A stretch of DNA of 64,000 nt, taken from IMG/VR virus record IMGVR_UViG_3300042305_001986, positions 54,537-118,536 of that record; one strand, written 5' to 3'. This DNA is from a virus. Positions 8,856 to 54,416 of the stretch are shown here, one piece after another. Made by a program: the position numbers and the translations under genes. Every line of letters starts with the position of its first letter. The first letter of the stretch is position 1. Below the pieces are notes generated by a model. It was not told where the DNA came from. It did no database searches and saw nothing but the letters and a program-made list of their open reading frames with translations.

Positions 8856-9245
8856 GGGGGCGATTTTGGATTTGACCGGTATGGTCAGGCACAGAGTGCA
8901 CGTAGTGAGATGAGATCTATCACTTTAATCTACGGTTTCAAAAACAACTGGCGAAACTTTCGCAAAACTTCAGTCTATTGGTTTGATCCAAACTGAAGAG
9001 GTTTACGCAGCCTAAGGCTCCGAAAACCTACGGGTCGGTCAGGACATATACCTATGAACAGAAGTCCACTGAAGGTTGGTTACCTTAATAACCAAAGGTT
9101 GTAGTACATCTTAAAGTATTACCACCGTGGCTGAACGGTGTGAGAATTCAGATATTTCGGATTATTGTGAATTAATAATGACCTAAACGTGTAGTACTCT
9201 CTGTTTGAGATACTAGGGACGGCGGTTCGAGTCCGCCCGCCTTCA
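8856..9245 (+). ncRNA. ssrA: tmRNA (transfer-messenger RNA)
   Basis: One-piece tmRNA. The 5' end GGGGGCG (8856-8862) pairs with CGCCTTC (9238-9244), giving a 7-bp acceptor with two G-U pairs. The 3' T-arm is GGCGG-TTCGAGT-CCGCC (9221-9237). The tag reading frame is best placed at 8950-9015: GGC GAA ACT ... GTT TAC GCA GCC TAA, coding 21 residues that begin GETFAK and end EEVYAA. Usual bacterial tags are about 8-15 residues and end in LAA; here Tyr-Ala-Ala ends a longer tag. CCA is not encoded. Ribosome rescue and marking of nascent proteins for proteolysis are the known role. The exact resume codon is inferred. Confidence 0.93.
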
Positions 9246-9268
9246 CTAAATAAACTTAATTTTCAAAA

Positions 9269-17803: not shown

Positions 17804-17875
17804 GCAATGGTAGCTCAATGGTAGAGTTCCAGTCTTCCAAACTGGATGTTGTGGGTTCGAATCCCATCCATTGCT
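17804..17875 (+). tRNA. tRNA-Gly (TCC)
   Basis: Acceptor GCAATGG/CCATTGC, D-loop TAGCTCAATGGTAGA, anticodon loop CTTCCAA, T-arm GTGGG-TTCGAAT-CCCAT. CCA not encoded. Confidence 0.92.
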
Positions 17876-17882
17876 CAAAAAT

Positions 17883-17981
17883 AGTCAGGTAGTGGATATG
17901 TAAGCGGGCTCAAGCTCGGTAAGTCGAAAAGGTATGATCCTCTTTACGAGGCCACATTGCAGGTTCGAATCCTGTCCTGAC
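17883..17981 (+). tRNA. tRNA-Leu-like (CAA?), long
   Basis: Acceptor AGTCAGG/CCTGACT and T-arm GCAGG-TTCGAAT-CCTGT are good. Best anticodon loop is CTCAAGC (CAA), with an imperfect stem. It is about 99 nt because of a long variable region that includes CCTC-TTTAC-GAGG. Identity uncertain. Confidence 0.5.
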
Positions 17982-17989
17982 TTCAAAAT

Positions 17990-18065
17990 GCGTCAGTAAC
18001 TCAATTGGTAGAGTGGTTATCTCCAAAGTAACAAGTTGTGGGTTCGAGTCCTACCTGACGTGCCA
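17990..18065 (+). tRNA. tRNA-Trp (CCA)
   Basis: Acceptor GCGTCAG/CTGACGT (one G-U), anticodon arm GTTAT-CTCCAAA-GTAAC, T-arm GTGGG-TTCGAGT-CCTAC. CCA appears encoded (18063-18065), unlike most others here. Confidence 0.88.
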
Positions 18066-18069
18066 ATAA

Positions 18070-18140
18070 GGTCGGATGTCCGAGTGGTTAGGTGAATCTC
18101 TGCAAAAGATTTAACACTGGTTCGAATCCAGTTCCGACCT
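18070..18140 (+). tRNA. tRNA-Cys (GCA)
   Basis: Acceptor GGTCGGA/TCCGACC, anticodon arm AATCT-CTGCAAA-AGATT, T-arm ACTGG-TTCGAAT-CCAGT. Confidence 0.9.
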
Positions 18141-18144
18141 CTAC

Positions 18145-18215
18145 TTCTCCATAGTATAATGGTAAAACAACGGATTTTGGTTCCGTGGTTTTAGGTTCGA
18201 GTCCTGATGGGGAAA
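18145..18215 (+). tRNA. tRNA-Gln (TTG)
   Basis: Acceptor TTCTCCA/TGGGGAA, anticodon arm ACGGA-TTTTGGT-TCCGT, T-arm TTAGG-TTCGAGT-CCTGA. Confidence 0.9.
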
Positions 18216-18231
18216 CAATGTTATATATTAG

Positions 18232-18321
18232 GTGTGGGCATGACCACAAATAAACAAAGGCGGGTTGGTTTCCCAACTTCGGAGAAATTCGGAGAGTCTG
18301 AGTTCGATTCTCACCCACACT
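18232..18321 (+). tRNA. tRNA-like RNA, identity unclear
   Basis: Acceptor GTGTGGG/CCCACAC and a TTCGATT T-loop are present, but the D-arm lacks the GG pair and the centre holds the hairpin GTTGG-TTTC-CCAAC and a direct repeat TTCGGAGA. No standard anticodon loop can be drawn. Could be an atypical class II tRNA or a degenerate copy. Confidence 0.45.
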
Positions 18322-18345
18322 CTAATATATAATTAATTATAAAAT

Positions 18346-18417
18346 GGCCCATTCGTCTAAAAGTAAGGACATTTGGTTTTCATCCAAAAAATCTCGGAGC
18401 GTTACCGGGATGGGCTA
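18346..18417 (+). tRNA. tRNA-Glu (TTC) with unusual T-loop
   Basis: Acceptor GGCCCAT/ATGGGCT, anticodon arm TTTGG-TTTTCAT-CCAAA. The T-arm pairs CTCGG/CCGGG but its loop is AGCGTTA rather than TTCRANY. Confidence 0.8.
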
Positions 18418-18425
18418 CTAATAAA

Positions 18426-18497
18426 GGTCTATTGGTGAAGTGGCTATCATACCTGCCTGTCACGCAGGAGTAGAGGGGTCGGAACCCTCATAGACCG
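18426..18497 (+). tRNA. tRNA-Asp (GTC) with unusual T-loop
   Basis: Acceptor GGTCTAT/ATAGACC, anticodon arm CCTGC-CTGTCAC-GCAGG. T-arm GAGGG-GTCGGAA-CCCTC lacks the canonical TTC. Confidence 0.85.
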
Positions 18498-18525
18498 CAT
18501 TTGTTTTATTAACTCCACCGAAAAA

Positions 18526-18548
18526 CCCACAAATCTTTAGTTTGTGGG
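18526..18548 (+). terminator. Hairpin closing tRNA cluster 1
   Basis: Stem CCCACAAA with TTTGTGGG, loop TCTTTAG. The following bases (ATAAAAGG) are not a T run, so termination strength is doubtful. Confidence 0.55.
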
Positions 18549-18595
18549 ATAAAAGGTTTGATTAAACATTTCTTAATTTAGGAATATTTATTTAC

Positions 18596-19867
18596 GTGAG
18601 AGAGCAAATACGCAAAATTCTAAAAGAATTATTTTCAGGTGACGGTTCCGTAACCTTTAGTTTTCGTGATATGAAGGCTTTTAAACCAACATACACTAAT
18701 GCTCCGTGGAGGGTATACTTTAATGGTTTAAAAATAAAAGATGGTCAATATTCACATGGTGAAAATACATATATAGATTTGATTGGAAATGATGTTGAGT
18801 TGAGAGGTATTAATCCTATAGATTTTATGAGTGATGGAAAATCGGGTTACGTTGACCTTTACAAACTTGAAGAAATAAAACCTGATATTCGTGAAATTTT
18901 GTTCGGTAGTAAGGATAGTGGAAAAGTAAAATCAGGTGTCGGTCCTGTAACCTTTAGTTTTCGTGATATGAAAGCTTATAAACCAACATACGGTCCGTGG
19001 AGGGTATACTTTAATAACTTAGAAACCAAAAAAGGCCAATATTCACATGGTAAAAATACATATATAGATTTGATTGGAAATGATGTTGAGTTGAGAGGTA
19101 TTAATCCTACAGATTTTAATTTTACGGAAGATGGAAAATCGGGTTACGTTAAGCTTTACAAACTTGAAGAAATAAAACCTGATATTCGTGAAATTTTGTT
19201 CGGTAGTAGGAATAGTGGAGAAGTAAATTCAACTTTAATTAGGAGTGCGTTAAAAAAGGCGTTTCCAAATAATTGGAAAGAACGAGATGAAATATATAGC
19301 GCAGGTATTAGAGATATAAATACAATAGGTGAAAGAACGGGTAAGGGCGAGTCATGGTCAATTATGAATTATTTTGATACAAAAAAAGAAGTACAAAAAA
19401 AAATATCACAAAAATGGAATAATGAAGGTGAAGGAGATTTAGAGGAATGGTTAGTTGATGTATTTAAAAACGACAACAATTTTATGAAAGAGTTATTGGA
19501 TATCCAATGGAGGTCAATAGAAAATGGTTATAATACTGAGATATATGCCTCAGAAGTAATTTCTAATCATATACCAGGTAATCTTGAGTTGTTCCCTCCT
19601 GGTTCTATAATTGACCGATACGGTTCAATAGACATGATTATTGGGGGTCAGAGTTTTCAAATAAAACCTTTATCTGGTCTCCTCGTAAAAGACGGTAAAT
19701 ATTTTGTTAAAACTTATGGTATGAAGAAGGACTATAAAAGTAAAAAAATTGATTATATTGTTTATGCAAAAATAGGTGGTAAGGTATATGTTTTCCCTAA
19801 TAAAAACTATGAAGTAGGTGGTGGAGGTAGTGAAGTGACACATTTTGAAAAACCTACAATCTATTAA
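18596..19867 (+). CDS. Tagged protein: duplicated domain plus PD-(D/E)XK-like nuclease
   Basis: 423 aa from GTG 18596. The leader MREQIRKILKELF ends in LKE. Residues about 18-110 and 117-210 are two copies of one domain (TFSFRDMKA, WRVYFN, GQYSHG, YIDLIGNDVELRGINP, LEEIKPDIREILFGS), each about 95 aa. The C-terminal domain (about 215-423) has DRYGSIDMIIGGQSFQIKPL at about 339-358, a D-x(n)-QxK arrangement as in PD-(D/E)XK nucleases with Gln replacing the middle acid. No signal peptide. ATATTTATT lies just upstream. If the leader directs packaging, this would be an injected nuclease; that is inference. Confidence 0.75.
   Translation: MREQIRKILKELFSGDGSVTFSFRDMKAFKPTYTNAPWRVYFNGLKIKDGQYSHGENTYIDLIGNDVELRGINPIDFMSDGKSGYVDLYKLEEIKPDIREILFGSKDSGKVKSGVGPVTFSFRDMKAYKPTYGPWRVYFNNLETKKGQYSHGKNTYIDLIGNDVELRGINPTDFNFTEDGKSGYVKLYKLEEIKPDIREILFGSRNSGEVNSTLIRSALKKAFPNNWKERDEIYSAGIRDINTIGERTGKGESWSIMNYFDTKKEVQKKISQKWNNEGEGDLEEWLVDVFKNDNNFMKELLDIQWRSIENGYNTEIYASEVISNHIPGNLELFPPGSIIDRYGSIDMIIGGQSFQIKPLSGLLVKDGKYFVKTYGMKKDYKSKKIDYIVYAKIGGKVYVFPNKNYEVGGGGSEVTHFEKPTIY
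18647..19208 (+). repeat. Tandem coding duplication (two ~280-bp units)
   Basis: Units start at the GTAACCTTTAGTTTTCGTGA sequence (18649 and 18947) and end near GAAATTTTGTTCGGTAG. Long stretches are unchanged at the DNA level, so the duplication is recent or is kept homogeneous. Confidence 0.85.
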
Positions 19868-19971
19868 CACCTTCAGTTAAAGATTAATTTACGTAGATCG
19901 AAAAAAGTCACATCAAAATTTGGAAAGATCAATCTCTTGCCATACCTTTGTGGTGTTAAAACAAACACACC

Positions 19972-20292
19972 ATGAAAAACGTCATCTCCAACCCCCAAAA
20001 ACGGATCGGCCGTGTAACCAACAACTTCGACTACGAAACCGTAGCGAAGGTCGTAAAGGCTCTGAACCGTGAGGCGATGTATACTTCTTGGTTGGAAGTG
20101 TCACCCGACTCTTTCAACGTCCAAACACTCAAGGACTATACCACCGTCGTGATGAACCAAGCATTCACTTCCTACGAACAGGAAGGAGTGACCAACTTCG
20201 GGATGGGTGGGTTCATTGTGGACATCCGAAACCACGAAGACAAGGTAAACGTAAACGTGGCTTACGTGATTGATGAGATGGACGCCTACTAA
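19972..20292 (+). CDS. Hypothetical protein with distinct codon use
   Basis: 106 aa, not recognised. Helix-rich N-half (FDYETVAKVVKALNREAMY) and a beta C-half (GGFIVDIRNHEDKVNVNVAY), no membrane segment. Codons are rich in C/G at third positions (AACTTCGACTACGAAACC), unlike most of the window. TACCTTTG promoter core lies about 30 nt upstream. Possibly a strongly expressed early protein. Confidence 0.65.
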   Translation: MKNVISNPQKRIGRVTNNFDYETVAKVVKALNREAMYTSWLEVSPDSFNVQTLKDYTTVVMNQAFTSYEQEGVTNFGMGGFIVDIRNHEDKVNVNVAYVIDEMDAY

Positions 20293-20306
20293 TAGTAGGC
20301 TCCTCT

Positions 20307-20339
20307 CCCCTCCCCAAAAATATAGAATAGAGGGAGGGG
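20307..20339 (+). terminator. G/C-rich hairpin after 19972-20292
   Basis: CCCCTCCC pairs with GGGAGGGG across a 17-nt AT-rich loop; followed by TTG rather than a long T run. Confidence 0.55.
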
Positions 20340-20361
20340 TTGAAACTTCAGAAGATTTGTT

Positions 20362-20386
20362 GTATGTTTTGGGTGTTCTTTGAAAT
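20362..20386 (+). promoter_or_regulatory. Degenerate promoter and boxA-like site
   Basis: TATGTTTTG (one base longer than TAnnTTTG) followed by TGTTCTTTGAAAT (20374-20386). It would originally have served the tRNA-Leu at 21078; the GIY-YIG gene now lies in between. Confidence 0.55.
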
Positions 20387-20419
20387 ATTGAAATAGGTAT
20401 ACAAAAAATGGTAGACGAA

Positions 20420-20429
20420 TATATTTATA
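20420..20429 (+). promoter_or_regulatory. TATATTTATA element
   Basis: Exact match ending 4 nt before the ATG of the GIY-YIG gene. Confidence 0.5.
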
Positions 20430-20433
20430 TATT

Positions 20434-21087
20434 ATGAAACCATATGTATATAAAATAACGGGTAAAAATAACACCTATTACTATGGTGTAAGATGGAATT
20501 ACTTCGGTAGTCCTGAAGACGACTTATTAGTAAAGTATTTTACATCATCCGATTACATAAAAGAAATTATGAGTAAAAATGGTGTTGATTTCTTTTCAGG
20601 AGAAATAATTAAAATTCTGAACACGAGAGAAGAGGCATTACAATTAGAATATGAATTAATTAAAAAGTCAATAAATGATGACTTATGTCTTAACCGTGCA
20701 ATTGGTAAATGCACTATTTGGGACGAATTTTTATTAAAAAAACTTTCTAACTCGATGCAACATAGGTGGGAGGACCCTAATTATAGATCAAAAATCGTAG
20801 AATCAAAAAAAGGCGAGAAAAATCCAAATTATATGAAACCATCTTGGAGAAATGTAAATAGTGATGTCCAATCATGGATGAAGTCTTTTCAAATATTTGA
20901 CGATTACATCAATGAAAGTTGGGATTTCACTAAATATGGATTCGGAAGACTTATGTTACAAAAAAGATATGATATCTCTCAAGGGACCTCAAGATGTCTT
21001 ATTAAAAAAATAAAAAATGGTTGGTCCCCATATAATGATATTGATTTTATAGATTTTTATAGAGAAAACACGTCCATGGCCGGATGA
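20434..21087 (+). CDS. GIY-YIG homing endonuclease with NUMOD-like motif
   Basis: 217 aa. The N-terminus has a GIY-YIG core in variant form (YVYKITGKNNTYYYGVRW, about 4-21), followed by the Arg/Glu helix region (EALQLEYELIKK). Residues about 105-140 hold a NUMOD3-like DNA-binding motif (KGEKNPNYMKPSW). The C-terminal helix region may be a DNA-binding repeat. Its last 10 nt overlap the tRNA-Leu gene, and it separates that tRNA from its promoter/boxA. This placement is that of a mobile gene inserted at a tRNA. Confidence 0.8.
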   Translation: MKPYVYKITGKNNTYYYGVRWNYFGSPEDDLLVKYFTSSDYIKEIMSKNGVDFFSGEIIKILNTREEALQLEYELIKKSINDDLCLNRAIGKCTIWDEFLLKKLSNSMQHRWEDPNYRSKIVESKKGEKNPNYMKPSWRNVNSDVQSWMKSFQIFDDYINESWDFTKYGFGRLMLQKRYDISQGTSRCLIKKIKNGWSPYNDIDFIDFYRENTSMAG

Positions 21088-21163
21088 TGAAATTGGTATA
21101 CATGTTTGACTTAAAATCAAATGGACCGAAGGGTCCGTGCGGGTTCGAGCCCCGCTCCGGCTA
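21078..21163 (+). tRNA. tRNA-Leu (TAA)
   Basis: Acceptor GGCCGGA/TCCGGCT, anticodon arm TTTGA-CTTAAAA-TCAAA, variable arm GGACC-GAAG-GGTCC, T-arm GCGGG-TTCGAGC-CCCGC. Overlaps the end of the homing gene. Confidence 0.93.
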
Positions 21164-21181
21164 CCGCAACAATTAAAACAA

Positions 21182-21742
21182 ATGAAAGTAATTTTTATGG
21201 ATCACGATGGTGTGATCTGTTTGGAATCTGAATGGGGTTCAAGATTCGATAAACAAAAGAAATATGATCCACGCCCCACCATCAAAGAAATCCCAATCTT
21301 GGATAGGTTTGACAACTTCAATCATAGTTGTGTTGAATGTCTAAATCAGGTCATCAGAGACACCGATTGTGAGATTGTAATTTCTTCTGATTGGAGAACT
21401 TGGGCAACTTTGGAAGAAATCGGTGAATATTATGAAAGTCAGGGGATCATCAAAAAACCAATCGGTTTTACCCCTTTCATCGATCGAAGTGAAGTTCCAC
21501 CTGAGTTCGAATTCAAGATGGGTCTTGGGTTAAACCAAACCCGAGTTTTGGAAATCAGAAAATGGTTGAACAACCATCCTCACGTCGTATCATGGGTCGC
21601 AATCGATGATATGAGACTTGGAGAACAGGGGTGGGGTTTGGAACATTTTGTTTTGTCAACAGATCACAAAAATGGAATTTGTAATTCCGAAGTTAAAACC
21701 TTATTGATCGAATATTTGAATCAACCGGTTCTTATATTGTGA
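21182..21742 (+). CDS. HAD phosphatase, RNA-repair-associated type
   Basis: 186 aa from ATG 21182; an in-frame start farther upstream would lie inside the tRNA. Motifs: FMDHDGVIC (motif I, catalytic Asp pair), VISSDWRTWA (motif II Ser), AIDDM (acidic motif IV). The S-S-(S/D)-W-R signature and closing DD are those of the small HAD domain found in multi-domain RNA-repair proteins. It would remove phosphate from a nucleic acid end or small molecule; substrate unknown. Located between tRNA-Leu and tRNA-Ser, which fits tRNA repair. Confidence 0.78.
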   Translation: MKVIFMDHDGVICLESEWGSRFDKQKKYDPRPTIKEIPILDRFDNFNHSCVECLNQVIRDTDCEIVISSDWRTWATLEEIGEYYESQGIIKKPIGFTPFIDRSEVPPEFEFKMGLGLNQTRVLEIRKWLNNHPHVVSWVAIDDMRLGEQGWGLEHFVLSTDHKNGICNSEVKTLLIEYLNQPVLIL

Positions 21743-21751
21743 CAATAAGTT

Positions 21752-21839
21752 GGAAGGTTACCCAAGTTGGTGAAGGGGTTTGTTTGCTAAACAAATAGGG
21801 CGAGGAATCGTCGCGTGGGTTCGAGCCCCACACCTTCCA
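21752..21839 (+). tRNA. tRNA-Ser (GCT)
   Basis: Acceptor GGAAGGT/ACCTTCC, anticodon arm TTTGT-TTGCTAA-ACAAA, variable arm GCGAGGAATCGTCGC, T-arm GTGGG-TTCGAGC-CCCAC. Confidence 0.93.
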
Positions 21840-21854
21840 CAAAAAAATAATGTT

Positions 21855-22454
21855 ATGATCAAAGTACTCGGAAATATTCCAACCTCTGAATTTGGACTTG
21901 CTTGTTCGGGAGGGGTTGACTCTATGGCCGTTTTGGATTTTTTGAGAAGATCAAATTATAATCCACACGTCCTTTATTTCAATCACAATACAGAACACGG
22001 TGATGATGCTGAAAAGTTTATCACCAAATATTGTGAGGAAAACGGTTTGAGTTTGTTTGTTGGAAGGACAGATCAAAAACCAAAATCCAACAAGGAAAAG
22101 ATGTGGTCTGATTTGAGGTATGAGTTTTTTCGATCATTTGATTTTCCAATCGTAACGTGTCACCATTTGGATGATTGTGTTGAAACATATATTTTCACTA
22201 TGACGAGGGGATTTCAATCGGTCATCCCTTATCGTAAGGAGAATGTTATTCGTCCTTTTCTTTTGACTGAAAAGTCTGAGTTCGAAAGTTGGTGTAAAAG
22301 GAAAAACGTACCTTTTATTCAAGACGAATCAAATAACTCGGTGGAATATTCAAGAAATAGAATCAGACATAATATTATTCCCGAACTTCTAAAGGTCAAC
22401 CCCGGTCTTAAAACTGTTGTGAAAAAAATGATCAAAAAAGATTTGGTGAATTGA
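21855..22454 (+). CDS. tilS: tRNA(Ile)-lysidine synthase, catalytic domain only
   Basis: 199 aa from ATG 21855 (16 nt after tRNA-Ser). N-type PP-loop CSGGVDSMAVLDF (about 17-29), HHLDDCVETYIF (about 103-114), MTRGF and a RPFL motif (about 137) are in the order of TilS. TilS attaches lysine to C34 of tRNA-Ile(CAU) so that it reads AUA. Bacterial TilS is usually 300-430 aa; the C-terminal tRNA-binding domains are missing here, as in minimal forms. A CAT-anticodon tRNA follows 50 bp downstream, which strongly supports the substrate. Confidence 0.9.
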   Translation: MIKVLGNIPTSEFGLACSGGVDSMAVLDFLRRSNYNPHVLYFNHNTEHGDDAEKFITKYCEENGLSLFVGRTDQKPKSNKEKMWSDLRYEFFRSFDFPIVTCHHLDDCVETYIFTMTRGFQSVIPYRKENVIRPFLLTEKSEFESWCKRKNVPFIQDESNNSVEYSRNRIRHNIIPELLKVNPGLKTVVKKMIKKDLVN

Positions 22455-22465
22455 GAAATATGTAA

Positions 22466-22489
22466 TATCTTTGTGGTGTTCTTTGAAAT
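22466..22489 (+). promoter_or_regulatory. Promoter and boxA-like site for CAT tRNA
   Basis: TATCTTTG (22466-22473) and TGTTCTTTGAAAT (22477-22489), 16 nt before the tRNA. Confidence 0.75.
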
Positions 22490-22505
22490 GTCGGAATAAT
22501 AAAAC

Positions 22506-22579
22506 CCTCCCATAGCTCAATCGGTTAGAGCGTCGGACTCATAATCCGCAGGTTCTTGGTTCAAGTCCAAGTGGGAGGA
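22506..22579 (+). tRNA. tRNA (CAT), probably Ile2
   Basis: Acceptor CCTCCCA/TGGGAGG, anticodon arm TCGGA-CTCATAA-TCCGC, T-arm CTTGG-TTCAAGT-CCAAG. The CC pairs at positions 4-5 of the acceptor and the ACTCATAATC context resemble bacterial tRNA-Ile2, the TilS substrate. Elongator Met cannot be excluded by sequence alone. Confidence 0.85.
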
Positions 22580-22675
22580 CTATTTGACTCTATATCTCAA
22601 TTGGTAGATTATTACCTTCCAAGATTGAGAATTCAAATTTGTCTCCTTCTTACAGGTCGAAAGTTCTTCACCTAC

Positions 22676-22721
22676 AGGCTTGTTGGGCCTTTCCTCTTCT
22701 GTGAAAGAGGCTTGTTGGGCC
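22676..22721 (+). repeat. 14-bp direct repeat in gene-free stretch
   Basis: AGGCTTGTTGGGCC at 22676-22689 and 22708-22721, flanking the hairpin CCTCTT-CTGTGA-AAGAGG. The 22580-22750 stretch holds no gene; it may be processed spacer RNA between two tRNAs. Confidence 0.6.
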
Positions 22722-22750
22722 CTTCCTGGCGTGTTGAACTCGACCCTTTT

Positions 22751-22824
22751 TCTCCCTTAGCTCAGTCGGTTAGAGCGGTTGACTGTTAATCAATAGGTCC
22801 TTGGTTCAAGCCCAAGAGGGAGAG
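22751..22824 (+). tRNA. tRNA-Asn (GTT)
   Basis: Acceptor TCTCCCT/AGGGAGA, anticodon arm GTTGA-CTGTTAA-TCAAT, T-arm CTTGG-TTCAAGC-CCAAG. Confidence 0.92.
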
Positions 22825-22851
22825 CAAAAAATAAAAATTATCTAAATCACT

Positions 22852-23055
22852 ATGAAAAAACTAATCAACATCACAGGATTTGCGTCACTCACACTCTTCA
22901 TCCTGTCATTTATTGTATTTTTAACTTGTATCCTTTGGGATGTGCCACTCGACGGTACCCTACTTCACGACCTAATCAGATACTCTCTAGTGGGTGGGTT
23001 GACCCTTAGTTACATTTGTTTTTTCATGTTTGTTTATCGAGAGTTTAAAGACTAA
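22852..23055 (+). CDS. Two-span membrane protein
   Basis: 67 aa. Hydrophobic spans at about 10-30 and 42-62, short basic N-terminus, acidic loop (DVPLDGTLLHDL), short charged tail. Set between tRNA genes on the same strand. Not recognised; holin-like size but no supporting context. Confidence 0.6.
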   Translation: MKKLINITGFASLTLFILSFIVFLTCILWDVPLDGTLLHDLIRYSLVGGLTLSYICFFMFVYREFKD

Positions 23056-23061
23056 AAACAC

Positions 23062-23159
23062 AGTCAGGTGGCGGAATTGGTTAGACGCACTCCTCAAATA
23101 AGATGTGTATAGGCTACGCGCTAATCCTATACGTACAGGTTCGAGTCCTGTCCTGACTA
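23062..23159 (+). tRNA. tRNA-Leu (CAA?), long variable arm
   Basis: Acceptor AGTCAGG/CCTGACT and T-arm ACAGG-TTCGAGT-CCTGT match those of the RNA at 17883. D-arm GGCGGAATTGGTTAGACGC is Leu-type, variable arm GTATAGG/CCTATAC is long. The anticodon stem is weak; CAA is the best reading. Confidence 0.7.
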
Positions 23160-23175
23160 CTAAAATAATAAACTA

Positions 23176-23886
23176 ATGAAAACAATCTTTATCGGAGACA
23201 TTCATGGTCGAGACATATGGAAAAAAATCGTAGAAAGTGAAAAAGCTGATCGGGTTCTTTTCATCGGGGATTATTTTGACAGTTTCGACATTGGATCAGC
23301 AGAACAACAATATAATTTCAAGGAAATTATTGAGTTCAAAGAAAAAGGTGAATGTGAGGTCATTATGTTGATTGGTAATCATGATTTCCATTATATTAAC
23401 ACTTACGAAGTGTATAGTGGATTTCAACGGAGTGCAGGACCAGCAATTCAACTTCTCATTAAAGAAAACCTACACCACTTTCAAATGTGTTATGAGATGG
23501 ATAATATTTTGTGTTCACATGCGGGTATTGGTTATGATTGGTTGGTAAATCAAAATAGATACAAGGAAGGAGAACCTATCTCTAACTTTGTAAATGAAAT
23601 TTGGAAATACAAACCACGAAATTTTGAGTTCAACGGAATATTTGATCCAACAGGTGATGATATCATGCAAACACCGATTTGGATTCGTCCAAGAAGTTTG
23701 ATGTCGGGAAATAAAAATACTTTTTTAAATGATCAATATATTCAAGTTGTAGGTCATACAGAAGTTAAAGAAATGCCAATGAAATTGATGTTGAAAAATA
23801 AATTATTTCTAATTGATGCTTTGCCCGTTGGTAATTACTTGATCTACGAGGAAAATTATTTTATGATTGGTGTTGTAAATGGGTAG
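23176..23886 (+). CDS. Metallophosphoesterase (PPP/calcineurin-like)
   Basis: 236 aa. Motifs in order: GDIHGRD (8-14), GDYFDS (about 36-41), GNHD (about 72-75), SHAG (about 119-122), VGHTEV (about 194-199). These bind the two metals of the calcineurin-like fold. Family members act as protein phosphatases (lambda-type), nucleotidases or diadenosine hydrolases. Full length for a lambda-phosphatase-like enzyme. It follows tRNA-Leu by 16 nt in the same transcript. Substrate unknown. Confidence 0.9.
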   Translation: MKTIFIGDIHGRDIWKKIVESEKADRVLFIGDYFDSFDIGSAEQQYNFKEIIEFKEKGECEVIMLIGNHDFHYINTYEVYSGFQRSAGPAIQLLIKENLHHFQMCYEMDNILCSHAGIGYDWLVNQNRYKEGEPISNFVNEIWKYKPRNFEFNGIFDPTGDDIMQTPIWIRPRSLMSGNKNTFLNDQYIQVVGHTEVKEMPMKLMLKNKLFLIDALPVGNYLIYEENYFMIGVVNG

Positions 23887-23903
23887 GTTTGTCCGTGGTA
23901 ACG

Positions 23904-23929
23904 GTCTGATGGGGGAAACCCTGTCAGAC
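23904..23929 (+). other. Hairpin in spacer before tRNA-Tyr
   Basis: GTCTGA pairs with TCAGAC, with GGG/CCC continuing toward the loop. The 23887-23998 stretch has no gene. Confidence 0.5.
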
Positions 23930-23998
23930 TTCCTGAACTAAAATCCATCACAAGGTCCCTCTCTTGGGTGGGGTAATGGGGGAAAAAACGGTCATTTT

Positions 23999-24078
23999 GG
24001 GGGTATCGCATAGTGGCAATTGCGGCTGACTGTAAATCAGCTCCTAACGGTTCGGTGGTTCGAGTCCATCTACCCCCA
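23999..24078 (+). tRNA. tRNA-Tyr (GTA)
   Basis: Acceptor GGGGGTA/TACCCCC, anticodon arm GCTGA-CTGTAAA-TCAGC, T-arm GGTGG-TTCGAGT-CCATC. Confidence 0.92.
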
Positions 24079-24088
24079 CAAGTTATAT

Positions 24089-24163
24089 CGGGATATAGCG
24101 TAGTCCGGTCATCGCGCCTGCTTTGGGAGCAGGAGGTCCCAAGTTCGAATCTTGGTATCCCGA
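24089..24163 (+). tRNA. tRNA-Pro (TGG)
   Basis: Acceptor CGGGATA/TATCCCG, anticodon arm CCTGC-TTTGGGA-GCAGG, T-arm CCAAG-TTCGAAT-CTTGG. Confidence 0.93.
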
Positions 24164-24164
24164 C

Positions 24165-24593
24165 AAGGAAGAGTTCTTTGACATTAAAAAAAATTAAAAA
24201 AATGACAATAGAATTATTAAATTTCGTGGGGGGTATGATACTATCAGGTTTTATTGGTTTGATAGTGTTTTTAGTTTCCGTGAACAAAAAAATCAAATTG
24301 TTGCAAGAAAAACAACAAGAAATAGATGACATAAGAGAACAAATGTCATACGATCATTCCAACTATGCTCGTGATCGTGAAATGATGGATAGACGTGTTT
24401 CAGAAGTTGTTGATGACTTGTCTCGTGAGCTTGACTTATCAAAAGATCACCTTCACAGACGAATCGATGAAGTTGAGATGAACTTTAATCGTGATTTGGA
24501 CAGTAGATTAGATAAACTAGAAAACCGATTGACTAATCGTTATGGGTCAATCATAATGGGTGAATAAATAAATAAACAAAAGAACTCTTCCTT
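24165..24593. repeat. 15-bp perfect inverted repeat flanking a gene
   Basis: AAGGAAGAGTTCTTT (24165-24179) and AAAGAACTCTTCCTT (24579-24593) enclose the 24202-24567 gene. The left arm contains the boxA-like GTTCTTTGACAT. Confidence 0.8.
24202..24567 (+). CDS. Membrane-anchored coiled-coil protein
   Basis: 121 aa from ATG 24202; earlier in-frame codons run through the tRNA-Pro gene and are not used. One hydrophobic span (about 8-29, FVGGMILSGFIGLIVFLVSV), then a long charged coiled coil (about 30-112) with DDIREQ and SRLDKLENRL heptads. Predicted inner-membrane anchor with cytoplasmic rod. Spanin-like or structural roles are possible; no lipobox, so not an o-spanin. Confidence 0.65.
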   Translation: MTIELLNFVGGMILSGFIGLIVFLVSVNKKIKLLQEKQQEIDDIREQMSYDHSNYARDREMMDRRVSEVVDDLSRELDLSKDHLHRRIDEVEMNFNRDLDSRLDKLENRLTNRYGSIIMGE

Positions 24594-24657
24594 TTCTTTA
24601 AAATATTTGGTAATTCGGTGAATTGGTTGTATATTAGTTTCACTAAAGAAAACCGAT

Positions 24658-24942
24658 ATGGAAAACCTTTTTGATTTCTACTCTGTTGAGATTTGTTCTC
24701 CTCGCAAACGATCTATCTACAATGCGTTGGGTAAGAAAGTGAGTTATTCCGATGGTCTTAAAAGTCGTAAGGTTCTAGATAACTCTGTTTTTCCGAAATA
24801 TGAATATTCATATAATGTAGGTTTCTCTTCTATCATGAATTCTTCACCCGAAGAAGCTTCTGCAAAGGCAGATGAGATTGCAAACAAATATCGGAATATT
24901 GAAGATGTCCGAGTATTGATCAAATACCATTGTCGGGATTGA
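24658..24942 (+). CDS. Hypothetical protein
   Basis: 94 aa, alpha/beta, no signal or membrane segment, not recognised. A TATATTAG element lies about 30 nt upstream (one mismatch to TAnnTTTG). Confidence 0.6.
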   Translation: MENLFDFYSVEICSPRKRSIYNALGKKVSYSDGLKSRKVLDNSVFPKYEYSYNVGFSSIMNSSPEEASAKADEIANKYRNIEDVRVLIKYHCRD

Positions 24943-24968
24943 TATAAATAATAAATAAATGAAATTAA

Positions 24969-25634
24969 ATGAATATAAAACTAGTTCACATTCTAACTGA
25001 AATTGAGTCAACAAGAGAAAAAAATTCAATTTTATCTTTGTCACCGTTGGGTAATTTGGGGATTGAGTATAAACAACAAATAAATCCGAGATATCTTGGA
25101 GAGGATTGGAAGATAAGACCTGCAATTACTCAATCAGAACATACAAATCATGGTCCTGGTCATTATGGAGCTTATCAATCATTCAAGCAAGCATTCTTGG
25201 ATAATTTCACAGATGATTTGGACGCATTGATCGTGTGTGAATGTGATTGCGTTCTTACCTGTTCACCTGAGGAATTTGTTGAAAAAGTAAAAGAAGGTAT
25301 AGAATTTTCGGAAAAACATAATTTGTCACACTTTTCACTTGGATCTAATTATTGTAACGGTTTTTTACAATCGTCTTTCAAAGAAGTTTATGATGAATCA
25401 AGTTTCTATGTAACTGACAAAATTATTATGGCCCATTGTTTGGTCTTTCCAAAAAAAACCAAGAGAGTTTTGTTCGAATCATTAGAAAAATTCTCGTGGG
25501 ATACACCAGATATTTGGTTCAATGAAATTTTTTGGAGGAACGGATTGAATCGATTCGGAATCCTGAAAGAAAAAGTAACAATACAACATGAAGGTATGTC
25601 TTTGATTGATAATCATTGGAAACATAGTCAATAA
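24969..25634 (+). CDS. Glycosyltransferase-like protein
   Basis: 221 aa. HGPGHYGAYQSFKQAFLDNF (about 58-77) followed by ALIVCECDCVL (about 84-94) resembles the acceptor helix and acidic metal motif of GT-A fold transferases, with E-C-D as the DxD-like element. C-terminal WFNEIFWRNG and HEGMS fit sugar-binding positions. Located away from the main glycan cluster. Family assignment is tentative. Confidence 0.55.
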   Translation: MNIKLVHILTEIESTREKNSILSLSPLGNLGIEYKQQINPRYLGEDWKIRPAITQSEHTNHGPGHYGAYQSFKQAFLDNFTDDLDALIVCECDCVLTCSPEEFVEKVKEGIEFSEKHNLSHFSLGSNYCNGFLQSSFKEVYDESSFYVTDKIIMAHCLVFPKKTKRVLFESLEKFSWDTPDIWFNEIFWRNGLNRFGILKEKVTIQHEGMSLIDNHWKHSQ

Positions 25635-25642
25635 TCAAAAAT

Positions 25643-25715
25643 GACCTCTTAGCTCAGTTGGTAGAGCAATACACTTTTAATGTATGGGCCGGCGGTTCGA
25701 GCCCGCCAGGGGTCA
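25643..25715 (+). tRNA. tRNA-Lys (TTT)
   Basis: Acceptor GACCTCT/AGGGGTC, anticodon arm ATACA-CTTTTAA-TGTAT, T-arm GGCGG-TTCGAGC-CCGCC. Confidence 0.93.
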
Positions 25716-25775
25716 CTTTTTTTTTCAAAATAATTTGTCTATTAAATTTTTTCCACATATATTTTTATAAAAAAA

Positions 25776-26415: not shown

Positions 26416-27153
26416 ATGAAAACCATGATTGAGAATCAAACACCATATCTTGGAAAGGTAAAATTCAGGTTCCAAAAATCTCCGAATTATATCGGGAAGA
26501 GTATCCTGAACCAAGTTCATTTGGATCTCGGATTTGTTAAGTTGGTTAGTAGGGTTTTTCCCGAAAAGGACAAGAATGGATGGATTCCGGACATTAACAA
26601 AATTTATAAGATTAACAGATTTACCGGCGGATACATCAGGAAATATTCTTGGTCTCACTCGGGAGAAACCTTTAACATTCCAAACTCATTTGTTTCTAAA
26701 GATGGAACTTTGATCGGAGATCTAAGGACAGGTTGGTCGTATTATCAAAACAATTTAAAAGTTTGTGATGATTTTCCAAAAGGTGTTGCGATCAAATACG
26801 ATGATGTTGAAAAAACAACTCATTATGCATCTCTAAAATATGGAACACCAAAAATAGTTGGATATGTAACTTCAACACATAGGGGTGAATCATTATTCAA
26901 AATCGGTGATAGATACTTTGAATCCGACTATATTCCAAACATCCAAGATTATGATGAAAATGAATGGAATAAATACAATTCCGAATTTATTCAATCTATA
27001 AAAAACGCAAAAGATTCCAACGAAAGAAAAAAGATTGAAGAAGGTGGAATCAGAAATTTCATACCATTTTCAAGGTTAGGAAAAAAAAAGATCAAGACAT
27101 TGTCTGAAGCAAAACAATCAGCAATAAATCTGTATACATATCTTTCGTCATGA
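26416..27153 (+). CDS. Hypothetical protein
   Basis: 245 aa, not recognised. Beta-rich N-terminal half with many Tyr/Trp (GGYIRKYSWSHSGETF, TGWSYYQNN), basic helical C-terminus (NERKKIEEGGIRNF, LGKKKIKTLSEAKQSA). Start taken at ATG 26416; another ATG at 26412 is out of frame. Overlaps the next gene by 4 nt. Confidence 0.6.
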   Translation: MKTMIENQTPYLGKVKFRFQKSPNYIGKSILNQVHLDLGFVKLVSRVFPEKDKNGWIPDINKIYKINRFTGGYIRKYSWSHSGETFNIPNSFVSKDGTLIGDLRTGWSYYQNNLKVCDDFPKGVAIKYDDVEKTTHYASLKYGTPKIVGYVTSTHRGESLFKIGDRYFESDYIPNIQDYDENEWNKYNSEFIQSIKNAKDSNERKKIEEGGIRNFIPFSRLGKKKIKTLSEAKQSAINLYTYLSS

Positions 27154-48864: not shown

Positions 48865-51003
48865 TTACCTCATTATTGTAACGTAACCTGATTTTTGAAT
48901 TGGTTTGTTATTCCAAGCAACCCCTGTAATAGTATACACATAAATTCCATCGGAAACAAAGTAGACACTTCCACTATTACTTGCGTTCCACACGGCATCG
49001 GGGTCTTCAGATTCCCAAATCAAACTGCCCCATCTGTTATAGATTTGAGTTTTCCAAGTTCTCCAACAGTCTGACTGAGTAACCACTCTCCAAACATCGT
49101 TTAATCCGTCATTGTTTGGTGTTATAACATTTGGTACGAATGTATGTAAATCCGCTTCCTCACAAATATCAATTTCATAAATACAAGTCCCATCGTCAGA
49201 GTTTGCAAATGGATCAAAGTTAAGGGCCGTTGGATCGGTACAACCAAATATAATTTCAGGATCGTATGTACAAGATCCATCTTCTATGTTCGCATTTGGG
49301 TTGTAGTTATTTGCTTCGGGATCCGTACAACCAAAAATATCATAATTACATGATCCATCATCAGTATTGGCATTTGGATCATAGTTATTTGCTAATTGGT
49401 CAGTACATCCGAAAATCAAAATTGGGTCGTAAGTACAAGAACCATCGTCAACAGTTGCGTTAGGGTTATAATTATTTGCCGATGGATCAGTACATCCAAA
49501 GACATCATATAAACAAGATCCGTCATCTGTATTTGCATCAGGATTGAAGTTATTCGCTAAAGGATCGGTACAACCAAAAACATCATAAGTACAAGAACCA
49601 TCGTCAACAGTTGCATTTGGATTATAATTATTCGCCAAAGGATCCATACAACCTGGAACGGGCATAATACAAGATCCGTCATCAACCGTTGCAAAAGGAT
49701 CATAGTTTATTGCTGAACTTATAGTACAACCATAACAAGGTAAGTCAATTATTGTTACAAAAGAATTATTCGTTACAATTACATCATTCGGTGTTTCGAT
49801 AGAGATAGAAGTAACACCATTTGATGATATACCTCCGTTTACCTCAACCACATAAGTTTGACCAGGTAAAATATTTAAATTAGAAAAACAATATTGTTCA
49901 CCAGGTATACCATCAGGAAGAATATCCAAATTCAAACAGAAATTGGTTATAGTTGTATTACCTTGGTTGGATAGTGTAATGTTCATAGCAGCATATGGTG
50001 AACCTACATCACATCCTATTATGTCGTAAGAAAAGGAATCAATAGATAAGTCAGTAACATCCACAACCGTTTGACAATTCTCATCTACACGAATTATATT
50101 ATCACCAATTGTAACTTCGAACGTATTTGGTGAAATCAAACTGGAACTATTATTTATTTGCCATAATACTACTTCATAACAATTATCGAAATTACCTTGA
50201 TTATAAGATTCTTGAAGACATGTTATTAATGGATAATTTGATGCTTGGTCTAAATCGAGAGTGATTGTATCCCCCAAAACATAATCAGGTAAATAAGATG
50301 AGGTAAAATGAAGATAAGTATGTCCTTGATTAGGAGATGGTCCACAGTTGTCTTCTAACAAACTATTTATACCAATGGTCATGTTATAAAATCCAGGATT
50401 ATTAAGGTTGAAGTTGTTCGGACCAGGTGGATATCCTACAGAAAAACAATTATAATCACTATGGACAACAACATCTAATTCCATTTCAGGTTCTGTCCTG
50501 AAATCATAGAGTTCAAAATTACAATCACAAAATTGATCCTGATTGATATTTGGACAATCATCACTCAAAGGTAGGAATGAGTTTATGGTTTGAGCATTTA
50601 TAAAACATCCATTCAAGTAAACCATCAAAGGACCATAGTTTGGGTTTGGCCAACCGTTGGGTCCTGTGATTTCATCCCAAAAAGGCCACTCTGTTGCGTT
50701 TTGGGGGGTTGGTATATCAAAAACTGGTGTAGTTATTTGTAAAGTACCATTTGGTTGAATGGGTGCGCTTAAATTGATATTCCAAACGGATTGAGGATTC
50801 ATTGGTGAATCCAACCACCCAAAAGAAAGATGGAATGTCCCGTTTTGAAAAGGTGTAGTTCCATTATTTTTTATTGTAAAACTAAACTTAACACCAGGAT
50901 CAACATCTATCTTTTGGAGTGTTCCAGGTTGGATAATAACATCACATTGGGAGTATAAATTAACACCTAATATTAAAAATAGTATGGATAGTAATATCCT
51001 CAC
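48865..51003 (-). CDS. T9SS-secreted adhesin with CHU_C-type C-terminus
   Basis: 712 aa. Signal peptide (about 1-18, MRILLSILFLILGVNLYSQC). Two CARDB-like beta domains (about 20-420), then seven Cys-paired repeats of the form GCTDPxAxNYNPxAxxDDGSC with acidic residues that suggest calcium binding (about 425-590). The C-terminus (about 618-712: FVPNVITPNNDGLNDVW, YNRWGSLIWES, GIYVYTI) is the gliding-motility CHU_C domain, a type B sorting signal of the T9SS. It would be exported and attached to or released from the host surface. A host-derived cargo gene in a phage context. Confidence 0.88.
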   Translation of the reverse strand: MRILLSILFLILGVNLYSQCDVIIQPGTLQKIDVDPGVKFSFTIKNNGTTPFQNGTFHLSFGWLDSPMNPQSVWNINLSAPIQPNGTLQITTPVFDIPTPQNATEWPFWDEITGPNGWPNPNYGPLMVYLNGCFINAQTINSFLPLSDDCPNINQDQFCDCNFELYDFRTEPEMELDVVVHSDYNCFSVGYPPGPNNFNLNNPGFYNMTIGINSLLEDNCGPSPNQGHTYLHFTSSYLPDYVLGDTITLDLDQASNYPLITCLQESYNQGNFDNCYEVVLWQINNSSSLISPNTFEVTIGDNIIRVDENCQTVVDVTDLSIDSFSYDIIGCDVGSPYAAMNITLSNQGNTTITNFCLNLDILPDGIPGEQYCFSNLNILPGQTYVVEVNGGISSNGVTSISIETPNDVIVTNNSFVTIIDLPCYGCTISSAINYDPFATVDDGSCIMPVPGCMDPLANNYNPNATVDDGSCTYDVFGCTDPLANNFNPDANTDDGSCLYDVFGCTDPSANNYNPNATVDDGSCTYDPILIFGCTDQLANNYDPNANTDDGSCNYDIFGCTDPEANNYNPNANIEDGSCTYDPEIIFGCTDPTALNFDPFANSDDGTCIYEIDICEEADLHTFVPNVITPNNDGLNDVWRVVTQSDCWRTWKTQIYNRWGSLIWESEDPDAVWNASNSGSVYFVSDGIYVYTITGVAWNNKPIQKSGYVTIMR
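49190..49735 (-). repeat. Seven ~75-bp coding repeats
   Basis: Tandem units code GCTDP...DDGSC Cys-paired modules within the adhesin; spacing 69-78 bp. A further related copy pair lies in the 52317-54416 gene. Confidence 0.85.
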
Positions 51004-52316: not shown

Positions 52317-54416
52317 TCAATTCAAATGAACTTTGTGAGTTCTGATTGTGCCATTTCTAAAATGTATATTAACTAAGTAAACACCTGATGATGTGATCTT
52401 GTTAATATCTATTTCTCTACCCAAAATATCATAGACAATAATTTTTTGAACAACATCCAACTTAATAAGTTCGATAATGCCAGTAACAGTATTTAATGAA
52501 CTTAAAGGTACCCCATCACAAGAATATCCAAAGATGGGATATTGACATTCAAAGTTTTCAGTTGCTTCTTCATTGTAATTACATGAGGTTGGATCCACAC
52601 AACCCAAAATTTCCAATTGGTCACAAATACCGTCAAGATCAATATCCAAGTTGCAACCACCAAAACAATCATAAACTTCACCACTGTAATAACATTCTCC
52701 TGAATCCATGTTGGCCACCGGATTAAAATTACAAGCAATAGGATCAGTACATCCTAAGATCTGTAAAATTTCGTCATAATCACAAATCCAATTAAAATTA
52801 CTATCAACACAAGTTTCAGCATCAACATCATCCAAACAAAAATTAATTACAAGTGGAGTTCCACTATTGGGTCCATAATATTGGATTGTTTGACCGTCAC
52901 CACTCAATAATTCCATAAAACCTATATCACTTAAGGGATCTTGAATTGTTAAGGTATAACAGCCAGCGGGTAGGCAATTAATTTCAAAATAAGGCAAAGT
53001 GTCGGCATTTGGATAATTCCCTCCCTCCCACACAACTTGATCATTTTCATCTGTGAATTGCCAATTTATCCAATTACCAAAATAATCAGTTGATATCACC
53101 AACGTGACTTCTTGTGATGGTTCAGAAATAAAATATTTGTCAACTTGGTTATCTTCGGTGTAAAAATCTTCAGTTACTAAACTAAAATTAATAGTTCCAC
53201 TCATATAGTCATTTGCCACCGAAGGAAAAGTCAAAATAACATAGTCACCAGTTTCAAAACTTTGATTTGATTCCCATGTCATAGTATGATTATACCCTGT
53301 CTCTGAAACATTACAAGACACTTGAAATGAATTGATTGAATTACCACCGGTATTTGTAATTCTTACTTGTGGTATAATTGATGGTGTCTCACAATGTAAA
53401 AAATATGTTGGTTCGGTAAGAGTTAAATTTGTATAGTCCAAAGGAACACATCCATCACTTTCAATTAACCCCTGTCGAGTGTAATGAAATAAACCATAAT
53501 TACTTCTCATTCTTGACTTCTGACCTTGAGTAAACATGTTTCTACAATCCTGATTGGTATAATCCATGTAGTTCTCTTTTTGTGTGATAGAACAATCACT
53601 GAAACTTGGATAACATGATGAATTACTGATGGTCGGTGGAGTATCACATACTTTATCACCCTGTACCACACAATCTGATTCATTTGATGCGTTATAACAA
53701 CTTGTGTAACCTTCGAATGTGTGATATAATCCGAAATAATGACCAACCTCATGAACAAAAACCCTACTTTTGTTGTGGGTTTCTTTTACATTACCAATCG
53801 AACCAACAACATTATGTAAAAGAACAATTCCATCTAAAATACTTGGTGTTGGGAAATACGCATACCCTTGAACTCCTCCGTTTCCATTATTCCCTTGGAT
53901 TTCCGAAACAATCCATACATTCATATACTTACTACGATCCCAACTCGTTGCCGTTTTGATCAAATTTTCTTGGGTACCAGGTTGATTAGGGGCCGAACTA
54001 ATACCATACAAAGGATAATCCACCCATTGGTTACCATTTACTCGATTAATTCCATTTGTGGGAATTCCATTCGGATCCCTCCGAGCCAAACAAAGTTCAA
54101 TTTCAGTATCAACCCCATCACCATCACCATTTGTTCCTGGTATCTTCCTTAAATCTTCATTTACAATTCTAAGAGCGTCCAATATCTGTTCATCAGAAAT
54201 GTTTGTTCCAACACCTACATCTTCACCCAAGTGGATGACATGAAACACAACAGGAATGGTGAATATTTGATCTCTATTTCCTTGGTAAGTGGGTCCATGA
54301 TACGCAACCGTATCAATCATTCCCATCATTTTAATGTGGTCAAATCCACATGGGTCTGATTGTGAAAATCCCACTAAAGAAATGAGAGTGAATAACGTAA
54401 AAAAGATTTTTTTCAT
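52317..54416 (-). CDS. Secreted M43/pappalysin-type metalloprotease, T9SS cargo
   Basis: 699 aa. Signal peptide (about 1-18). Metzincin zinc site HEVGHYFGLYH (222-232), with VCDTPPTISNSSC and MDYTNQDCRNMFTQGQ (Met-turn) as in the M43 family. Beta domains follow (about 330-550), then two Cys-paired repeats (GCTDPIACNFNP and GCVDPTSCNYNE) and a C-terminal T9SS type A domain (about 640-699: VYDILGREIDINKITSSGVY, HFRNGTIRTHKV). It would be secreted by the host T9SS and degrade proteins outside the cell. Intact, so not decaying. Confidence 0.92.
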   Translation of the reverse strand: MKKIFFTLFTLISLVGFSQSDPCGFDHIKMMGMIDTVAYHGPTYQGNRDQIFTIPVVFHVIHLGEDVGVGTNISDEQILDALRIVNEDLRKIPGTNGDGDGVDTEIELCLARRDPNGIPTNGINRVNGNQWVDYPLYGISSAPNQPGTQENLIKTATSWDRSKYMNVWIVSEIQGNNGNGGVQGYAYFPTPSILDGIVLLHNVVGSIGNVKETHNKSRVFVHEVGHYFGLYHTFEGYTSCYNASNESDCVVQGDKVCDTPPTISNSSCYPSFSDCSITQKENYMDYTNQDCRNMFTQGQKSRMRSNYGLFHYTRQGLIESDGCVPLDYTNLTLTEPTYFLHCETPSIIPQVRITNTGGNSINSFQVSCNVSETGYNHTMTWESNQSFETGDYVILTFPSVANDYMSGTINFSLVTEDFYTEDNQVDKYFISEPSQEVTLVISTDYFGNWINWQFTDENDQVVWEGGNYPNADTLPYFEINCLPAGCYTLTIQDPLSDIGFMELLSGDGQTIQYYGPNSGTPLVINFCLDDVDAETCVDSNFNWICDYDEILQILGCTDPIACNFNPVANMDSGECYYSGEVYDCFGGCNLDIDLDGICDQLEILGCVDPTSCNYNEEATENFECQYPIFGYSCDGVPLSSLNTVTGIIELIKLDVVQKIIVYDILGREIDINKITSSGVYLVNIHFRNGTIRTHKVHLN

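What the first reader, a model, noticed from the sequence alone, without database searches (positions are those of the whole stretch)
21855..22579. Phage TilS encoded next to a CAT-anticodon tRNA
A minimal TilS (PP-loop and catalytic domain only) is followed 50 bp later by a tRNA with anticodon CAT whose acceptor has C at positions 4 and 5 and whose loop context resembles tRNA-Ile2. The phage thus seems to bring both the AUA-decoding tRNA and the enzyme that makes its lysidine. This fits an AT-rich genome with many ATA codons.
Basis: partly seen in the sequence, partly recalled or inferred. Interest (0 to 1): 0.72.

Follow-up and report, generated by a model that had tools for sequence, protein, structure and literature searches.

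The report
Phage lysidine enzyme beside its tRNA
A large phage carries a stripped-down copy of the bacterial enzyme that retunes one isoleucine tRNA to read the codon AUA, next to a gene for that tRNA; the same pairing recurs in unrelated phages, so phages may bring their own AUA-reading kit instead of relying on the host's.

Summary
Window 21855-22454 encodes a 199-aa TilS catalytic domain (TIGR02432, 121 bits against a cut-off of 93.6; confident fold, best PDB match Aquifex TilS with ATP and lysine). A well-formed CAU tRNA starts 51 bp later at 22506. Against Bacteroidota references it scores as tRNA-Ile2 (53.6 bits) over elongator Met (41.9) and initiator Met (28.5), with C4-G69, C5-G68 and A73.

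The gene belongs to a widespread viral family: at least 565 IMG/VR stretches; members measured are about 195-218 aa, against a median of 438 aa for bacterial TilS. It forms one clade (100/99) apart from the bacterial TilS sampled. Neither C-terminal tRNA-binding Pfam domain was found in eight phage records. A CAU tRNA lies within about 120 bp of tilS in five divergent lineages, and the three complete genomes examined each carry an Ile2-like tRNA.

Phage TilS is not new (MIJ3, 2019), nor are phage tRNA-Ile2 genes (T4-like phages). What seems new is the N-domain-only viral clade, its recurrent linkage to the tRNA, and the weak 27-43 pair in most partner tRNAs. The AT-rich rationale is weak here: AUA is 30% of Ile codons, below compositional expectation. 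Lysidine formation is inferred, not shown.

The parts
21855..22454 (+). tilS, 199 aa, TilS N-terminal (PP-loop/catalytic) domain only
   Evidence: TIGR02432 121 bits, cut-off 93.6; PF01171 114 bits; AlphaFold2 pLDDT 91.4; best PDB match 2e89, Aquifex TilS with ATP and lysine, E 4e-15, TMq 0.82
22506..22580 (+). tRNA with CAU anticodon, tRNA-Ile2 type (annotated Met by ARAGORN); last base is the first C of CCA, the rest of CCA is not encoded
   Evidence: Ile2 53.6 / eMet 41.9 / iMet 28.5 bits; C4-G69, C5-G68, A73, ASL TCGGA-CTCATAA-TCCGC with a T27.C43 mismatch
21752..21840 (+). tRNA-Ser(GCT), 15 bp upstream of tilS in the same array
17804..25716 (+). main tRNA array holding the pair (13 ARAGORN tRNAs, interleaved with small genes)

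Best explanation
The phage encodes a two-part AUA-decoding kit. Part one is a tRNA-Ile2 with a CAU anticodon. Part two is an N-domain-only TilS that adenylates C34 with ATP and replaces the 2-oxo group with lysine, giving lysidine; the tRNA is then charged with isoleucine and reads AUA instead of AUG. Shown here by sequence or model: the TilS N domain with its conserved active-site motifs, the Ile2-type tRNA, their physical linkage in several lineages, and no detected C-terminal tRNA-binding domains. Inferred: catalytic activity, that the phage tRNA is the preferred substrate, that recognition rests mainly on the anticodon stem-loop, and that the benefit is AUA decoding during infection.
For: TilS N-domain equivalog above cut-off; fold closest to TilS in the PDB. 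The PP-loop (SGG.DS) and residues R88, D107, E110, R167, N168 and R171 are invariant in 33 viral TilS; R88, D107, E110 and R171 align with Aquifex TilS R113, D137, E140 and R205 (alignment; catalytic roles recalled from the Aquifex papers). The tRNA scores as Ile2 by 11.7 bits over elongator Met. A CAU tRNA is the nearest tRNA in 7 of the 16 distinct TilS loci that have any tRNA within 2 kb, and lies within 2 kb in 11 of them; CAU is 9.9% of tRNAs in ten carrier records (binomial P 5e-4 over loci, 1.6e-3 over ten hand-grouped lineages). Ile2-like tRNAs are present in MIJ3, LR756502 and LR745206. Purifying selection. tilS has fewer AUA codons than its flanking genes (17 seen, 61.5 expected, 15 clusters at 75% identity), while other A-ending codons are closer to parity (ratios 0.62-1.21) and bacterial tilS shows no such bias (158 against 163.6).
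Against: No biochemistry. Most of the 80 distinct TilS loci have no tRNA within 2 kb, and in LR756502 the Ile2 tRNA is about 185 kb away. Known TilS enzymes are described as using C-terminal domains for tRNA binding (PMC12514573); an N-domain-only form might be weak or unselective. The AUA avoidance is not unique: against whole genomes tilS ranks in the lowest 2-28% of genes (rank-based P 0.0016), and other genes are as low. The class models are built from Bacteroidota: E. coli elongator Met scored as Ile2 with them, so calls in proteobacterial phages are less sure, and G003, G009 and L423 score slightly higher as elongator Met.
Confidence: 0.75

Rival explanations
1. The phage TilS works mainly on the host's own tRNA-Ile2, raising its modified fraction during infection; the phage CAU tRNA is secondary or made by the host TilS.
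For: Most TilS loci have no CAU tRNA within 2 kb, one 139-kb fragment with tilS has no tRNA at all (G014), and T4-like phages carry tRNA-Ile2 while no T4-like phage was among the TilS hits (PMC1524935). P. aeruginosa TilS was among the slower enzymes measured (PMC12514573), so boosting could pay.
Against: The three complete carrier genomes (MIJ3, LR756502, LR745206) and several large fragments also carry an Ile2-like tRNA; linkage to CAU tRNAs exceeds background. The window tRNA differs from Bacteroidota tRNA-Ile2 at 27-43 (T.C against C-G or T-A) and at 1-72, as if not tuned to the host enzyme.
Confidence: 0.15
2. The CAU tRNA is an elongator methionine tRNA and its proximity to tilS is a by-product of a dense tRNA array.
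For: ARAGORN calls it Met; the window holds 17 ARAGORN tRNAs, and tRNA-Ser is closer to tilS.
Against: Ile2 beats elongator Met by 11.7 bits, with C32 (the Bacteroidota elongator Met references have T32) and the Bacteroidota Ile2 pairs at acceptor positions 3-7; linkage recurs in four other lineages.
Confidence: 0.05
3. The N-domain-only protein no longer makes lysidine and serves another role, such as a regulatory partner or a different PP-loop chemistry.
For: It lacks the C-terminal domains; a TilS-HprT complex is reported to activate ftsH transcription in B. subtilis (reference listed in PMC6892783).
Against: Active-site motifs invariant across 33 divergent members, closest fold is TilS rather than TtuA or other PP-loop enzymes, purifying selection, linkage to CAU tRNAs.
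Confidence: 0.05

Closest known systems
TilS of Pseudomonas jumbo phages MIJ3/PA5oct (Wroclawvirus; PMC6892783)
   Same: Same viral clade, about 44% identical, N domain only; MIJ3 also carries two Ile2-like CAU tRNAs.
   Different: MIJ3 tilS is about 9 kb from those tRNAs; the paper found it closer to bacterial TilS and lists the tRNAs as Met. The larger set here puts it inside a viral clade.
Type II bacterial TilS, e.g. Aquifex aeolicus (PDB 1wy5, 2e21, 2e89)
   Same: Same N-terminal fold and active-site motifs, best structural match.
   Different: Type II keeps CTD1 (A. aeolicus chains of 311-317 aa); the phage form ends at the end of the N domain.
tRNA-Ile2 (CAU) of T4-like phages (PMC1524935)
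   Same: Phage tRNA with CAU predicted to be lysidine-modified and to read AUA; T4's has the same loop and a weak 27-43 pair (G.A).
   Different: No T4-like phage was among the records matching the phage TilS; T4 therefore presumably relies on host TilS.
Huge Bacteroidetes phages of 634-642 kb (Mahaphage; PMC7162821)
   Same: Nearest relatives of the TilS in the annotated phage collection, 76% identical; LR756502 has an Ile2-like tRNA.
   Different: In LR756502 tRNA-Ile2 is far from tilS, and these genomes also carry tRNA-Ile(UAU). The text search of that paper found tRNA modification genes but no mention of lysidine.

Membership tests
TilS (tRNA-Ile lysidine synthetase) | TilS N-terminal catalytic domain above the curated cut-off | tested here: met
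   TIGR02432 121 bits, cut-off 93.6, positions 3-189 of 189
TilS (tRNA-Ile lysidine synthetase) | PP-loop SGGxDS and conserved active-site residues | tested here: met
   SGGVDS; R88, D107, E110, R171 align with Aquifex R113, D137, E140, R205 and are invariant in 33 viral members
TilS (tRNA-Ile lysidine synthetase) | Makes lysidine at C34 of tRNA-Ile2 | not testable with these tools
   needs enzyme assay or tRNA mass spectrometry
TilS type I or type II | C-terminal domain CTD1 (type II), or CTD1 and CTD2 (type I) | tested here: not met
   The ORF ends with the N domain; PF09179 and PF11734 have no match at E <= 1 in eight carrier records. Caution: both models are weak detectors, passing their cut-off in only 4 and 6 of 14 control genomes. 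Not filed as type I or II.
tRNA-Ile2 (CAU) | CAU anticodon with the C32-U33-C34-A-U-A37-A38 loop | tested here: met
   CTCATAA loop
tRNA-Ile2 (CAU) | Class similarity above elongator and initiator Met | tested here: met
   53.6 against 41.9 and 28.5 bits with Bacteroidota class models; class labels assigned here by comparison with E. coli and B. subtilis sequences recalled from memory
tRNA-Ile2 (CAU) | TilS determinants known from E. coli in the acceptor stem: C4-G69 and C5-G68 | tested here: met
   both present; determinants as given in PMC12069591
tRNA-Ile2 (CAU) | TilS determinant known from E. coli in the anticodon stem: G27.U43 | tested here: inconclusive
   27-43 is a T.C mismatch here: weak like the E. 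coli pair but not the same bases; this determinant is reported as not conserved outside gamma-proteobacteria (PMC12069591)
tRNA-Ile2 (CAU) | Lysidine at 34 and charging with Ile | not testable with these tools
   needs tRNA sequencing or acylation assays

The most novel reading that the evidence does not exclude
Phages evolved a third TilS architecture, the catalytic domain alone, that identifies its tRNA from the anticodon stem-loop (including a weak 27-43 pair) rather than the acceptor stem, and together with its own tRNA-Ile2 it forms an AUA-decoding pair that is functionally independent of the host enzyme.
Probability: 0.35. Interest if true: 0.75.

Novelty: new variant of a known kind. 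Interest (0 to 1): 0.56.

Why it matters
TilS decides both the amino acid and the codon of one tRNA, so a phage that carries it controls a branch point of the genetic code in the infected cell. An N-domain-only enzyme would also show how much of TilS is needed to tell tRNA-Ile2 from tRNA-Met, a question so far addressed with enzymes that have C-terminal domains. The family is common in environmental phages, PHROGs returned no TilS family for it, and its partner tRNAs are labelled Met by ARAGORN and in the MIJ3 record, so AUA-decoding capacity in phages is probably under-counted.

Tried and rejected
A split TilS with CTD1/CTD2 on another gene: no PF09179 or PF11734 match in eight carrier records, though these models are weak detectors. 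Recent capture of a host tilS: rejected for the sequences sampled, since viral and bacterial TilS separate with 100/99 support; the bacterial set was chosen by similarity to the viral one and one long bacterial branch (L117) meets the viral clade, so the root and donor stay open. AUA richness as the driver in this phage: weak. AUA avoidance in tilS as decisive proof of function: strong against flanking genes, but genome-wide ranks show it is not unique to tilS, so it is kept as suggestive. A weak 27-43 pair as special to TilS phages: it is also weak in T4 and Aeromonas phage 65 tRNA-Ile2, so it is a wider feature of Ile2 tRNAs in phages; what is notable is that the window tRNA differs there from Bacteroidota host tRNA-Ile2. 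A single-protein scan of bacterial genomes found no relative.

Full report
WHAT IS THERE. The window is 64,000 bases of a 118,536-base virus record. An ORF at 21855-22454 encodes a 199-aa protein. It passes the NCBIfam TilS N-domain cut-off (121 bits against 93.6) and the Pfam PP-loop cut-off, and its closest solved relatives are TilS of Aquifex, Geobacillus and E. coli. AlphaFold2 gave pLDDT 91.4; Foldseek placed it closest to Aquifex TilS bound to ATP, Mg and lysine (2e89, E 4e-15, TMq 0.82), ahead of TtuA-type enzymes. The protein stops where the TilS N domain ends. 51 bp downstream is a CAU tRNA. The two genes lie in an array of tRNAs.

THE tRNA. CAU tRNAs were collected from nine Bacteroidota genomes and fall into three groups. 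They were labelled initiator Met, elongator Met and Ile2 by comparison with E. coli and B. subtilis tRNAs recalled from memory. Profile scores for the window tRNA are Ile2 53.6, elongator Met 41.9, initiator Met 28.5. It has C4-G69, C5-G68 and A73, and positions 3-7 pair as in Bacteroidota tRNA-Ile2; it differs from those at pairs 1-72, 2-71 and 27-43 (T.C mismatch). Limitation: with these models E. coli elongator Met also scores as Ile2, so calls are safest for Bacteroidota phages. A Bacteroidota host is indicated by the nearest phage relatives (634-642 kb phages predicted to infect Bacteroidetes, PMC7162821), by tRNA genes without an encoded CCA end as in the Bacteroidota references, and by a type IX secretion signal domain in a window protein.

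A VIRAL TilS FAMILY. tblastn in annotated phages found the gene in two 634-642 kb phages (76% identity) and in the Pseudomonas Wroclawvirus group (44%). Family members in the first set are 195-218 aa, while bacterial TilS ORFs have a median of 438 aa. In a tree of 72 sequences the 32 viral ones are one side of a branch with 100/99 support. This differs from the MIJ3 paper, which put its TilS nearer bacterial TilS (PMC6892783), probably because few viral sequences were then available. Neither PF09179 nor PF11734 was found in eight carrier records. Purifying selection is clear (dN/dS about 0.07 for the closest pair).

LINKAGE. Among 80 distinct viral TilS loci, 16 have a tRNA within 2 kb; CAU is present in 11 and nearest in 7. 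CAU tRNAs lie within about 120 bp of tilS in the window lineage, L357, L373, L389/L442 and L469, whose TilS are 41-50% identical to one another. With 9.9% CAU among tRNAs of ten carrier records, the nearest-neighbour excess has binomial P 5e-4 over loci and 1.6e-3 over ten lineages that I grouped by hand. MIJ3, LR756502 and LR745206 each carry an Ile2-like tRNA though not adjacent. L389 and L442 have 99% identical TilS but different CAU tRNAs with the same anticodon stem-loop, and MIJ3 and G013 carry paralogous CAU tRNAs with one stem-loop and different acceptor stems. This is what recognition through the stem-loop would allow, but it is not proof.

THE 27-43 PAIR. In the Ile2-type tRNAs of the fully read carrier records, 27-43 is a mismatch in 9 of 11, against 14 of 154 in their other non-CAU tRNAs; several of the 11 are paralogues or near relatives. 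T4 and Aeromonas phage 65 show a weak pair too, so it is not tied to carrying TilS. It is Watson-Crick in the seven Bacteroidota tRNA-Ile2 references.

CODONS. AUA is 22.7 per 1000 codons here, 44.2 in MIJ3 and 45.8 in LR756502, 15.6 in a Bacteroidota sample and 0.9 in P. aeruginosa (PMC12514573). So the case that the host cannot supply AUA decoding is strong for MIJ3 and modest for the window phage. Viral tilS genes themselves are poor in AUA: 17 against 61.5 expected from flanking genes in 15 clusters, with other A-ending codons closer to parity and no such bias in bacterial tilS. Against whole genomes the effect is weaker: tilS ranks in the lowest 2-28% of genes in nine records, rank-based P 0.0016, and other genes are as low. 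Gene calls for these counts were simple longest-ORF calls.

INTERPRETATION. The best-supported reading is that the phage brings tRNA-Ile2 and the enzyme that converts its C34 to lysidine. Phage TilS (MIJ3) and phage tRNA-Ile2 (T4-like phages, PMC1524935) were each known. The N-domain-only viral clade and its recurrent linkage to the tRNA were not found described in the papers searched; that library omits most subscription journals. Activity, substrate preference and benefit remain inferences.

Noticed in passing
window 8856-9248: Phage tmRNA (Rfam 96.6 bits); several other TilS carriers also have a tmRNA (G008, G003, G013, G012).
   Followed up: partly
window 21137-21742: Just upstream of the tRNA-Ser/tilS pair: a HAD_SAK_2 protein (HAD domain of 'Swiss Army Knife' RNA repair proteins, Pfam 92.9 bits), a hint of RNA repair near the tRNA array.
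   Followed up: no
window 20434-21087; L006 3100-3620: Homing-endonuclease-like gene abutting tRNA-Leu(UAA). In L006/L007 extra sequence, apparently with an HNH-type ORF, lies between tilS and the CAU tRNA. T4 has the homing endonuclease gene segB beside its tRNA-Ile.
   Followed up: partly
window 23062-23159: A further tRNA found by Rfam (37.4 bits) but not by ARAGORN; looks Leu-like with a long variable arm.
   Followed up: no
window 48865-51003 and 52317-54416: Large predicted secreted proteins: one with a type IX secretion signal domain (CHU_C), the other with an M43-type peptidase domain; the first suggests a Bacteroidota host.
   Followed up: partly
L002 13502-13575; L003 12224-12298 and 35424-35495: The 634-642 kb relatives carry tRNA-Ile with a UAU anticodon as well as an Ile2-like CAU tRNA and TilS, i.e. 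two possible ways to read AUA.
   Followed up: partly
window 26416-27153: Protein matching Tad6, a type I Thoeris inhibitor family, just above the Pfam cut-off (33 bits against 27).
   Followed up: no
G008:C1 near 83712: ARAGORN calls a CUA-anticodon tRNA (Pyl label) close to the tmRNA in this 352-kb carrier; possible amber suppressor or false call.
   Followed up: no
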